Source: Planctomycetota bacterium (lineage in GTDB: Bacteria; Planctomycetota; UBA1135; GCA-002686595). Taken from it: a stretch of DNA of 64,000 nt. Below are positions 1-46,891 of this stretch, piece by piece. The position numbers and the translations under genes were made by a program. The stretch lies in the NCBI GenBank assembly GCA_002686595.1, contig NYXZ01000108.1, forward strand, positions 1 to 64,000. The letters run 5' to 3'. Each line of letters starts with the position of its first letter. Positions within the stretch are counted from its first letter, which is position 1. Under the pieces are notes generated by a model. The model saw only the letters and a program-made list of their open reading frames with translations. It was not told the DNA's origin and did not search any database.

Positions 1-160
1 AACTCCCCCCCTTGGGGGGGCTGGGGGGGGGAACCAACCACCCTCCCCGCCGCAAACACACAAGCCAAAGCAACAAGCCAAGCAACTCCCCCCCTTGGGG
101 GGGCTGGGGGGGGGAACCAACCACCCTCCCCGCCGCAAACACACAGAGCCACAGACAAGC
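1..160. repeat. Two tandem units (period 83 bp) of a dispersed G/C-homopolymer palindromic repeat, core AACTCCCCCCCTTGGGGGGGCTGGGGGGGGGAACCA plus an A/C-rich tail
   Basis: Seen directly: identical cores at 1 and 84 followed by CCACCCTCCCCGCCGCAAACACACA; same core recurs at 45.9-46.2 kb. Left edge of the array is cut by the window. Confidence 0.95.
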
Positions 161-42605: not shown

Positions 42606-43793
42606 CTAGGAGGGAGGCCCCAGGGCCCTGGATAGGGCCAGGAGCTCCGCCACGGACAACTCCCCAGGCCTGGCGCTCCCGTCCAGGCCGAGGCTCCCCA
42701 GCACCTCCCCGGCCCGTTCCCGATCGCCGAGTTGACGGCCCAGGAGTCCCAAGAGGGCCTTCCTGCGCTGGCCCAGGAGGATCCCGGTCCAGTCCCCAAG
42801 ACAGGTCATCTCCTGCGCTCCGGGCCGCTGCGGGAGCAGTTCCAACTGGAGCACGGCGCTCTCCACCCGGGGCCGGGGCCAGAACAACTCGGGTCCCACG
42901 GTGCGCACCATGCGGGCCCCGTAGAGGGCCTGGACTTGGACCGAGAGCGGCCCCCAGTCGCGCGTCCCGGGCACCGCCACCAGCCGGTCCACCATCTCCC
43001 GCTGGAGCAGCAGGGTCATGGTCAGCGGCGGGTTGGGCAGACGCGCCAGCAGCGCCGTCACTGGCCCCCCCACGCTGTAGGGCAGGTTGCTGACCACGCG
43101 CCAGCTGCCCTCGTCCGGCAGGGCCTCCAGCACTTCCTGGGCCAGGTGATGTTTGCCATCGAGTACATCGCAGTGGATCCACTTCACTGACGGAGCTTTC
43201 CCAGTCGCGGCGGCCAACCGTTCCCGGGCCACCTCCAGCAGGCGTCCGTCGATCTCCACCGCGCTCACCCGCGCCCCGGCGGCCACCAGGGGCACGGTCA
43301 AGGAGGCACAGCCGGAGCCGATCTCCAAGACGAAGTCCCCGGCCTCAACTCCGCCATCCCGCACAATGGCCCGGGCCAGATTGGCGTCCACCATCATGTT
43401 CTGGCCCAGGCGCCGGGAGGGCCGGTAGTCCCGGGCGGCCAACTCCGCGCGCACCGCCTGCCAAGTGCCGGCTTCCCCGTTGCCTTGCTCTTCACTGCCT
43501 TGCTCCCCGCGGCCTTGCTCCCCGCGGCCAGGTTTCCCGGCGCCAGATTCTCCAGTGCCAGATTCTCCGGCGCTGCTCTCCTTCGCGTCGTTTTCCATCG
43601 TGCAGTTTCCCTCTGCGCCGATTTCTCCAGCGCAGTTTCCCGCGGCGTGGCTCTCTTCCGTGCCGCTTCCCTCCGCGCAGTTTCCCTCTGTGCCGATTCC
43701 TCCAGCGCTGTTTCCCGCGGCGTTGCTCTCTTCCGTGCCGTTTCCCTCCGTGCCGTTTTCCCCCGTGCCGTTTCCTTCCGGCGGCGAGTTCAT
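42606..43793 (-). CDS. rsmA: 16S rRNA (adenine1518/1519-N6,N6)-dimethyltransferase with repeat-rich N-terminal extension
   Basis: YRPSRRLGQNMMVDANLARAIV, VLEIGSGCASLTVPLVAAGARVSAVEID, VVSNLPYSVGGPV; N-terminal ~110 aa are period-5 repeats. Confidence 0.93.
   Translation of the reverse strand: MNSPPEGNGTGENGTEGNGTEESNAAGNSAGGIGTEGNCAEGSGTEESHAAGNCAGEIGAEGNCTMENDAKESSAGESGTGESGAGKPGRGEQGRGEQGSEEQGNGEAGTWQAVRAELAARDYRPSRRLGQNMMVDANLARAIVRDGGVEAGDFVLEIGSGCASLTVPLVAAGARVSAVEIDGRLLEVARERLAAATGKAPSVKWIHCDVLDGKHHLAQEVLEALPDEGSWRVVSNLPYSVGGPVTALLARLPNPPLTMTLLLQREMVDRLVAVPGTRDWGPLSVQVQALYGARMVRTVGPELFWPRPRVESAVLQLELLPQRPGAQEMTCLGDWTGILLGQRRKALLGLLGRQLGDRERAGEVLGSLGLDGSARPGELSVAELLALSRALGPPS
43602..43751. 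repeat. 75-bp imperfect direct repeat x2 built of 15-bp (pentapeptide) subunits, 5' part of rsmA
   Basis: 43602-43676 vs 43677-43751 aligned by eye: about six mismatches. Confidence 0.9.
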
Positions 43794-44878: not shown

Positions 44879-45649
44879 CTACTCGCCGCCGATTTGGGCG
44901 TCCTGGACGAAGATCTCCACACGACGGTTCAGGCGCTTGTTGTCGGCGCTGTCATTGGCCACAACCGGTTCATGGGGGCCGAAGCCAGCCACCACCATGT
45001 CCGCCGCTGGAATCTGCTTCGAGGCCACCAACAACGAGGCGACCCCCACCGCCCGCGCCGCCGAGAGCTCCAAGTTGCCACCGGGAAAACGCTCCAGGGT
45101 CTTGGGTCGAACGATGGGATCACTATCCGTGTGTCCGCGTACCCAAACACGGCCGTGGGGCAGGGCTGCAATCTCACTAGCCACTTGCGCCAGGGCCTTT
45201 TGCCCCTCCGCGCCGACCTCCGCCGAACCGGAGGCAAAGAGCACCTTGTCCTGCACCATGTAGACATAGCCTCCCTCCACATCAAAGCGCTCCACATCTC
45301 CCGGCGGCCGGCCGAGGGTGTTCAGCATTTCCTGCAGTTCACCCATGCGGTGTTCGATGCGCGTGTCGAAGCCCGCCTCCAACACCTCCACTTGGCTCAG
45401 GGCCAGCTCGCCCTTGAGTTGTTCGGAGCGCGCCTCCAGCTGGGCCACATATTGGCTGAGGTCGTGGACCTGGGTTTGGTAGCGTTTGGCGGACTCGAGA
45501 GTCTCGTCGTACTTGCCCTGGGAAACGCAGGAAGCCAAAAGGGCCAGGCCCAGCAAGGCCGGGGCCAGGCTAGGTGTCAGTTTGGCGGTTGCGGCGTCTT
45601 GGCCGTGGTGTCGAATTGTGTTCATCGCGTTGTTGATTGCTCGTGCCAT
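44879..45649 (-). CDS. OmpA-family peptidoglycan-binding lipoprotein
   Basis: Lipobox LALLASC; OmpA core VRGHTDSDPIV...ELSAARAVGVASLLVASKQIPAADMVVAGFGPHEPVVANDSADNKRLNRRVEIFV; start 45625 or 45649. Confidence 0.9.
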   Translation of the reverse strand: MARAINNAMNTIRHHGQDAATAKLTPSLAPALLGLALLASCVSQGKYDETLESAKRYQTQVHDLSQYVAQLEARSEQLKGELALSQVEVLEAGFDTRIEHRMGELQEMLNTLGRPPGDVERFDVEGGYVYMVQDKVLFASGSAEVGAEGQKALAQVASEIAALPHGRVWVRGHTDSDPIVRPKTLERFPGGNLELSAARAVGVASLLVASKQIPAADMVVAGFGPHEPVVANDSADNKRLNRRVEIFVQDAQIGGE

Positions 45650-45767: not shown

Positions 45768-46260
45768 GAAAACTCCCCCCCCCTTGGGGGGCCGGGGAGA
45801 GAACCACACACCCCCTTGCCACCGCGCACACCAAAGCAAAAAGCGCATACCCAAACCCAGCGCACACGCAAGCCCAGCTGTCCCACTCCCCAAAACCAGA
45901 AAACTCCCCCCCTTGGGGGGGCTGGGGGGGGGGACCACACAACCCCTTGCCACCGCACATACCCAAGCCCAAGCACATACCCAAGCCCCGCTGTTCCACT
46001 CCCCAAAACCAGAAAACTCCCCCCTTTGGGGGGGCTGGGGGGGGGAACCACACAACCCCTTGCCACCGCGCACACCCAAGCCCAGCGCATACCCAAGCCC
46101 AGCTGTCCCACTCCCCCAAACCGGAAAACTCCCCCCCTTGGGGGGGCTGGGGGGGGGAACCACACAACCCCTTGCCACCGCGCACACCCAAGCCCAGCGC
46201 ATACCCAAGCCCAAGCACATACCCAAGCCCCACTCCCCCACTCCCCCAAACCGGAAAACC
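45768..46260. repeat. Four tandem units (131, 113, 112, 130 bp) of the C7-TT-G7-CT-G9 palindromic repeat family
   Basis: GAAAACTCCCC starts at 45768, 45899, 46012, 46124; each has a C-run/TT/G-run palindrome, second G-run, then ACCACACA(A)CCCCTTGCCACCGC and CCCAAGCCC-type tail; first unit core degenerate. Confidence 0.96.
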
Positions 46261-46348
46261 GGAAAACCCGAGAGATCACCGGCCGCGCTGGATTCAGCAA
46301 AGCGCCGCCGGACCGGGGGCCGGCGGCGCAGCGAGTGTGCCCTAGCTC

Positions 46349-46891
46349 CTAGAACTTGGCGCCGAAGATCCCAGCCACGCTCTCGGCCACGCTATTCAGC
46401 TGACCGCGAGAGAGGGCCAGGGCGATCGGCAGACCGAGGACCAGGACCAGGGTGGTGGCAATGGCCGCCAGGCGCACGCCCATGCCCTCGCTCTCTTCCG
46501 CCGGCGCGGCGACGACGGCAGCGGCGGAGCTACGGCGCACGGGGGCGGCTTCGGCGATGTCCTCTTCCTCGGCGAGGTCGATTTCACCCACATCCTCCAC
46601 ATCCTCGATGAGCGTATCCACATCGGTGATTTCCTGGGTGGCCATGCCGGCCTCGTCGTCCAAGTCCACGGCATCCTCGAAGACGACCTCTTCGCCGGCA
46701 TCGGCCACCGAGACCACTTCGCCGGATAGATCGCTGCGCAGGCTGTCCACATCGCTGCGGCGTAGTTTCATGGTATCGCCTTCACGGAAGGCGCGAATTT
46801 CGCCCTCCGAGACGAGGCGTTTCAGCTCCTCGTCCTTGAGGCGCAGTTTGTCGAGGGCTTCCTCGAAGCTGAAGAATTCGTTTTCTGCCAC
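46349..46891 (-). CDS. HTH (MerR/excisionase-like) protein with acidic linker and C-terminal TM helix
   Basis: FSFEEALDKLRLKDEELKRLVSEGEIRAFREGDTMKLRRSDVDSLR; TM MGVRLAAIATTLVLVLGLPIALAL. Confidence 0.75.
   Translation of the reverse strand: MAENEFFSFEEALDKLRLKDEELKRLVSEGEIRAFREGDTMKLRRSDVDSLRSDLSGEVVSVADAGEEVVFEDAVDLDDEAGMATQEITDVDTLIEDVEDVGEIDLAEEEDIAEAAPVRRSSAAAVVAAPAEESEGMGVRLAAIATTLVLVLGLPIALALSRGQLNSVAESVAGIFGAKF

What the first reader, a model, noticed from the sequence alone, without database searches (positions are those of the whole stretch)
45768..46260. Second locus of the same repeat family: four tandem units with variable A/C-rich tail
The 36-bp core seen at position 1 recurs 45 kb away in four tandem units. 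Units 2-4 keep 6-7 C, TT(T), 7 G, CT, 9-10 G; the first unit is decayed (C9-TT-G6-CC-G4). The tail (ACCACACAACCCCTTGCCACCGC plus CCCAAGCCC modules) is G-poor on this strand and varies by module number (112-131 bp). Core conservation across loci with tail divergence is what a dispersed extragenic palindromic family (REP/BIME-like) or a non-autonomous mobile repeat would show. It lies in the gap between two minus-strand genes (HTH-TM and OmpA lipoprotein). I do not recognise it as a described family.
Basis: partly seen in the sequence, partly recalled or inferred. Interest (0 to 1): 0.72.

Follow-up and report, generated by a model that had tools for sequence, protein, structure and literature searches.

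The report
Poly-C/poly-G triplex-type DNA repeat
A short DNA motif (seven C, seven G, nine G), of a sequence type already known from E. coli to fold into a three-stranded structure, is repeated at least 25 times in this uncultured bacterium, embedded in long repeated stretches rich in A and C, and looks like a local hotspot of DNA instability rather than a gene or a classical mobile element.

Summary
In detail: four head-to-tail units at 45,768-46,260 (spacing 131, 113, 112 bp), the first decayed, with the same core as at position 1. Genome-wide there are at least 25 copies in 13 clusters on 10 contigs. The number is a lower bound, because four contigs end in or within 13 bp of a core. The core AACT-C7-TT-G7-CT-G9 meets the published sequence definition of a class II (Y-R-R) purine-motif intrastrand triplex motif, the kind that includes E. 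coli BoxC/PIT/TM_ECO. It is not a REP/BIME by the tests run: no GTAG/CGTC tag, no Y1/RAYT transposase found in this 86%-complete MAG, head-to-tail instead of inverted. What sets it apart is its setting: in 12 of 13 clusters the flanks are strongly A/C-rich on the core's own strand, which none of 61 comparable motifs in other genomes shows. One copy lies inside an in-frame expansion of about 110 residues in an IorA-like gene that two relatives lack. Best explanation: a triplex/hairpin-prone element that stalls replication and drives local tandem gain and loss. How it spread is unresolved. New variant of a known kind; triplex formation and instability here are inferred, not shown.

The parts
45768..46267 (+). 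A/C-rich tandem-repeat island carrying four cores, between the stop of the gene at 46349-46891 (-) and the start of the OmpA-family gene at 44879-45625 (-)
   Evidence: A+C = 0.77 outside the cores against a window mean of 0.517, sd 0.041
45775..45797 (+). core unit 1, decayed: C9-TT-G6-CC-G4
   Evidence: model match 45.2 bits
45906..45933 (+). core unit 2: C7-TT-G7-CT-G10, class II (Y-R-R) triplex-type motif
46019..46045 (+). core unit 3: C6-TTT-G7-CT-G9
46131..46157 (+). core unit 4: C7-TT-G7-CT-G9
5..31 (+). core at the contig start (contig C52 begins 4 bases upstream of it)
88..114 (+). second core of that locus, 83 bp downstream; the island ends just before the ORF at 166-1296, read here as tgt from its sequence

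Best explanation
The repeat is a family of class II purine-motif intrastrand-triplex-type elements (5' pyrimidine stem C7, loop TT, purine stem G7, loop CT, third purine strand G9), same in kind as E. coli BoxC/PIT/TM_ECO, drawn out here to pure C/G runs. When the C..G..G strand is single-stranded during replication or repair it can fold into a hairpin or G*G.C triplex (a G-quadruplex is also possible) and stall the polymerase. Slippage and template switching between the short direct repeats around it (CTCCCC before the core, usually CTCCCC or similar after it) then duplicate or delete the core together with the neighbouring A/C-rich sequence, giving the head-to-tail arrays of unequal unit length. 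Shown here: anatomy, copy number, strand-coupled A/C islands, units with and without cores in the same arrays, and an in-frame expansion in one gene. Inferred: triplex folding, stalling, slippage. Unresolved: how the core reached unrelated loci.
For: The core satisfies the ITxF rule (stems 6-15 nt, loops 1-6 nt, order Y-R-RH) with stems of 7 and loops of 2 and 2. The related E. [quoted passage not shown] Consistent with obstruction and repetition, 7 of 13 clusters lie within 400 bp of a contig end, and contigs C37, C43, C52 and C70 end in or within 13 bp of a core. Array units with and without a core coexist in C28, C31, C41, C70 and C111, joined at the same xCTCCC(CC) sequence. The C111 copy sits in an in-frame expansion of about 110 residues absent from the orthologue of a same-family genome (67% identical over the TPP domain) and from a shorter homologue. 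A+C on the core strand is 0.69-0.84 in 12 of 13 clusters.
Against: No structure was measured. In E. coli, in vivo footprinting did not show stable triplex. DNA folding energy of the core is no better than that of shuffles (z 0.12 to -0.95), though that model cannot score triplexes. Slippage explains arrays but not the spread of one near-identical core to many unrelated loci. Homopolymer lengths in a MAG are uncertain. Contig ends could reflect repetition alone. Polymerase-stall evidence comes from a different sequence in another organism.
Confidence: 0.55

Rival explanations
1. A REP/REPIN-like non-autonomous element: the hairpin is recognised and moved by a Y1 (TnpA_REP/RAYT or IS200-like) transposase, perhaps one lost or missing from this assembly.
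For: Short hairpin-bearing core at many unrelated loci in both orientations relative to genes; absent from 100 relatives, as expected of recent spread; the genome is only 86% complete and breaks at the cores; 10 of 12 other genomes that hold a similar motif do have Y1 proteins.
Against: No PF01797 match in this genome; no comparable motif in the fetched flanks of 30 Y1 genes from the other genomes; no GTAG/CGTC tag, the mark of the two described REP superfamilies; nearly all neighbouring units are head-to-tail, an arrangement described as absent or under-represented in GTAG REPs.
Confidence: 0.15
2. An intrinsic transcription terminator or attenuator on the opposite strand (C7-AA-G7-AGTTTTC).
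For: Five terminator-like matches over two cores on the minus strand, the strand of both flanking genes.
Against: The T-run exists only where the core is preceded by AAAACT; most other loci read ACAACT, TAACT, GCGCAACT, ATCT or CCT. Clusters also lie upstream of gene starts, between divergent genes and inside ORFs, in both orientations. E. coli PIT elements had no promoter or terminator activity.
Confidence: 0.08
3. A G-quadruplex element: the two G tracts (G7 and G9) fold into a quadruplex and the C tract is incidental.
For: G7 plus G9 contain at least four runs of three G; competing quadruplex formation was considered for the E. coli motif too.
Against: The C tract is as invariant as the G tracts in all copies; for the E. 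coli motif NMR favoured triplex over quadruplex.
Confidence: 0.15
4. Assembly or sequencing artefact (poly-G errors).
For: Fragmented MAG; contigs break at the cores.
Against: The same C-TT-G-CT-G order occurs in at least 22 full units with different unique flanks, many of them internal to contigs that carry normal genes.
Confidence: 0.03

Closest known systems
Class II purine-motif intrastrand triplex motifs (PIT elements; ITxF database), PMC4666352
   Same: Y stem - short loop - R stem - short loop - third R strand; stems and loops within the published limits; dispersed, mostly intergenic, no strand bias to genes
   Different: Pure C/G stems, 2-nt loops, head-to-tail arrays, A/C-rich strand-coupled islands, and two clusters inside ORFs
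E. coli BoxC / TM_ECO (CCCTCNCCC N3-6 GGGNGAGGG N3 GGGNGAGGG)
   Same: Same class and order of stems; widespread in E. coli (4488 of 5426 genomes matched)
   Different: Stem sequence, 3-nt second loop; reported always intergenic and, when paired, inverted
C6-N1-4-G6-CT-G6 motifs of Bacteroidota, Anaerolineae, Solirubrobacterales and others found
   Same: Same core order, C and G runs and CT second loop (the query fixed these)
   Different: Flanks of neutral composition (A+C 0.51, sd 0.06, none of 61 at 0.69 or above) and close pairs mostly inverted, 17 against 2
REP/BIME (GTAG- or CGTC-tagged palindromes), PMC2817692, PMC3733652
   Same: Short palindrome-bearing dispersed repeat, often clustered
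   Different: No tag, no RAYT found, direct rather than inverted neighbours

Membership tests
Class II intrastrand triplex motif | Order 5' pyrimidine stem, complementary purine stem, third purine strand | tested here: met
   C7-TT-G7-CT-G9 in the aligned copies; definition
Class II intrastrand triplex motif | Stems 6-15 nt, loops 1-6 nt | tested here: met
   Perfect 7-nt stems, loops 2 and 2; unit 46019 has a 6-nt C stem
Class II intrastrand triplex motif | More frequent than chance | tested here: met
   4 in the window against 0 in 100 simulations; reversed pattern 0 genome-wide
Class II intrastrand triplex motif | Folds into a triplex as a single strand | not testable with these tools
   Needs CD/NMR
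BoxC / TM_ECO | Consensus CCCTCNCCCN3-6GGGNGAGGGN3GGGNGAGGG | tested here: not met
   Stems are pure C/G and the second loop is CT, 2 nt
BoxC / TM_ECO | Always intergenic in E. coli MG1655 | tested here: not met
   Two clusters lie inside ORFs
REP/BIME | GTAG/GTRG or CGTC tag beside the palindrome | tested here: not met
   Flanks of the palindrome are AACT and CT-G9 on one strand, CCAG and AGTT on the other (definition)
REP/BIME | Cognate RAYT (Y1_Tnp, PF01797) in the genome, flanked by the repeat | tested here: not met
   0 matches in G000 while 10 of 21 genomes in the same search had one; the genome is 86% complete, so absence is not proven
REP/BIME | Neighbouring copies in alternating (inverted) orientation | tested here: not met
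   Arrays are head-to-tail; opposite orientations seen only at C37 and at the C70 contig start
CRISPR array | Unique spacers of near-constant length between repeats | tested here: not met
   Intervening sequence is itself tandemly repeated and of variable length
Rfam families | Match at the curated threshold | tested here: not met
   Only a tRNA in the window

The most novel reading that the evidence does not exclude
A transposase-free genomic repeat: the C/G triplex core itself seeds new copies by structure-induced template switching into CTCCC sites and expands the surrounding DNA into strand-polar A/C-rich arrays, reaching even into coding genes in frame.
Probability: 0.15. Interest if true: 0.7.

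Novelty: new variant of a known kind. Interest (0 to 1): 0.4.

Why it matters
[quoted passage not shown] This genome offers an extreme, apparently lineage-limited burst: near-identical homopolymer cores in arrays that keep units with and without the core side by side, and one copy inside a conserved enzyme gene whose relatives lack the expansion. That makes gain, loss and protein-level tolerance of such motifs testable.

Tried and rejected
Coding repeat: unit spacings of 83, 112, 113 and 131 bp do not keep frame; only the copies in C31 (minus strand) and C111 lie in frame inside ORFs. Rfam: nothing. Plasmid and phage collections: no match. REP/RAYT: no Y1 gene in the genome, and no comparable motif beside 30 Y1 genes of genomes that carry similar motifs. 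Hairpin energy: not different from shuffles. A/C islands independent of cores: of the CAAGCC-repeat sites outside core loci, C104, C134 and C137 are ordinary sequence of near-neutral composition, and C74 lies about 100 bp from a contig end. Three protein searches of relatives with long queries failed on the server; a shorter query worked. The phylum was not established; gene content suggested Planctomycetota to me from memory, untested.

Full report
What is in the window. The core is 5'-AACT-C7-TT-G7-CT-G9-AACCA. At 45,768-46,260 it occurs four times on the + strand, at 45775, 45906, 46019 and 46131, spaced 131, 113 and 112 bp; the first copy is decayed (C9-TT-G6-CC-G4). Two more copies lie at 5 and 88. 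The array sits between an OmpA-family gene (44879-45625, -) and a gene with a weak HTH_17 match (46349-46891, -).

Genome-wide. A 60-position sequence model built from 22 copies finds 25 matches with E below 1e-4 on 10 contigs of the 3.38-Mb, 150-contig genome; the next best has E 0.19. A simple pattern finds the core at the same places, and the reversed pattern finds nothing. I group the copies into 13 clusters. Seven of the 13 lie within 400 bp of a contig end, where by simple arithmetic about 4% of the genome lies. Contigs C37 and C70 begin inside a core, C52 begins 4 bases before one, and C43 ends 13 bases from one. The true copy number is therefore probably higher. None of 100 relatives (same family or order) has this core; the five that matched the loose pattern carry other C/G runs, nearly all merged runs, plus one single CTCCCCCATCAGGGGGTCGGGGG. 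No relative of the array was found in 20 close genomes, nor in plasmid or phage records.

Anatomy. In the alignment the C, G and G runs are the invariant part. The A/C-rich 'tail' differs between loci but is similar within a locus. Outside the cores, A+C on the core's own strand is 0.69-0.84 in 12 of 13 clusters (the exception is 0.54), against a mean of 0.517 and sd 0.041 for 300-bp windows. In C28, C31, C41, C70 and C111 the array also contains units that carry the xCTCCC(CC) start without the core; in several loci a CTCCCC-like stretch also follows the core. This is what gain or loss between short direct repeats would leave, but the direction is not decided. Two degenerate cores were seen, in C28 and C37.

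Position relative to genes. From the gene calls and my reading of their sequences, the clusters lie between selA and selD, upstream of tgt, between divergent genes, downstream of a Ppx/GppA-like gene, upstream of a MarR-like gene, and so on, in both orientations. Two lie inside long ORFs. In the C111 ORF (TPP-enzyme and pyridine-nucleotide-reductase domains) the core reads ISPPLGGAGGG inside a run of 13-residue repeats. A same-family orthologue, 67% identical over the TPP domain, and a shorter homologue both lack about 110 residues exactly there. So the island, core included, looks like an in-frame expansion within this lineage.

What kind of thing it is. Holder et al. 2015 (PMC4666352) define class II intrastrand triplex motifs as pyrimidine stem, purine stem and third purine strand, stems 6-15 nt and loops 1-6 nt. 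The core fits, with 7-nt stems and 2-nt loops. Perfect motifs of this size occur four times in the window, all here, and never in 100 simulations. The best-known member, BoxC/PIT/TM_ECO, is present in most E. coli genomes; it folds as a stable triplex in vitro, causes a polymerase stop, has no promoter or terminator activity, and marks genomically unstable sites. The sequence consensus of BoxC is not met here, so this belongs to the class by sequence rule, not to BoxC.

What is different. A scan of 84,980 species representatives for C6-N1-4-G6-CT-G6 gave 35 stretches, mainly Bacteroidota. Around them, 61 comparable motifs have neutral flanks (A+C 0.51, maximum 0.62), and close pairs are mostly inverted, 17 against 2. 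In this genome the flanks are A/C-rich and the arrays head-to-tail. I found no description of that combination, with a limited literature search.

Not a REP. REPs carry a GTAG or CGTC tag and, for GTAG types, a RAYT. Here there is no tag, and no PF01797 match in the genome, although 10 of 21 genomes in the same search had one. The assembly is 86% complete, so a missing enzyme cannot be excluded. In other genomes with similar motifs, no motif was found in the fetched flanks of Y1 genes.

Mechanism. I favour a structure-driven instability element: transient folding of the C-G-G strand stalls synthesis, and slippage between nearby direct repeats amplifies or removes units. Shown: anatomy, arrays with and without cores, the in-frame expansion, and contig breaks at cores. 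Inferred: triplex, stalling and slippage. Unknown: dispersal. A terminator role is unlikely because the T-run is present at only some loci and the positions are mixed. Quadruplex folding remains a structural rival.

Limits. This is a fragmented MAG, so homopolymer lengths are uncertain. The model was trained on most of the copies it finds. The closest compared relatives are of other genera. Folding was not measured.

Noticed in passing
L046, L052, L059, L077 (Solirubrobacterales): C6-N4-G6-CT-G6 lies in the same sequence context in four different genomes (similar coding-looking sequence before it, GGTTCTGG.. and CGCGCGCGTTGGGC-like sequence after it), which suggests vertical conservation at one site.
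   Followed up: no
L050, L062, L065, L067, L068, L072, L079 (Bacteroidales MAG S28M_St_metabat_126): One MAG holds many copies of CTCCCCCC-N4-GGGGGGCTGGGGGG, some as inverted pairs about 45 bp apart, next to what look like coding sequences.
   Followed up: partly
L038:3579-3722 (-): Two cores 99 bp apart lie in frame inside a 989-aa YfhO-like ORF, both read as NSPPLGGLGGG within Asn-rich repeats; whether relatives lack this stretch was not tested.
   Followed up: partly
L044:160-560 (-): 38-bp tandem repeats (AGCCTTGGAAAGCTCAAGCCAAGCACAGATCCTCCCC), two of whose units carry the core.
   Followed up: partly
window 43474-43780: 15-bp and 75-bp imperfect tandem repeats inside the minus-strand gene 42606-43793, encoding Asn/Gly/Thr/Glu-rich repeats.
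   Followed up: no
G000:C74:40575-40605 (L180): Array of CAAGCC repeats without a core about 100 bp from a contig end; a core may lie just beyond the end.
   Followed up: partly
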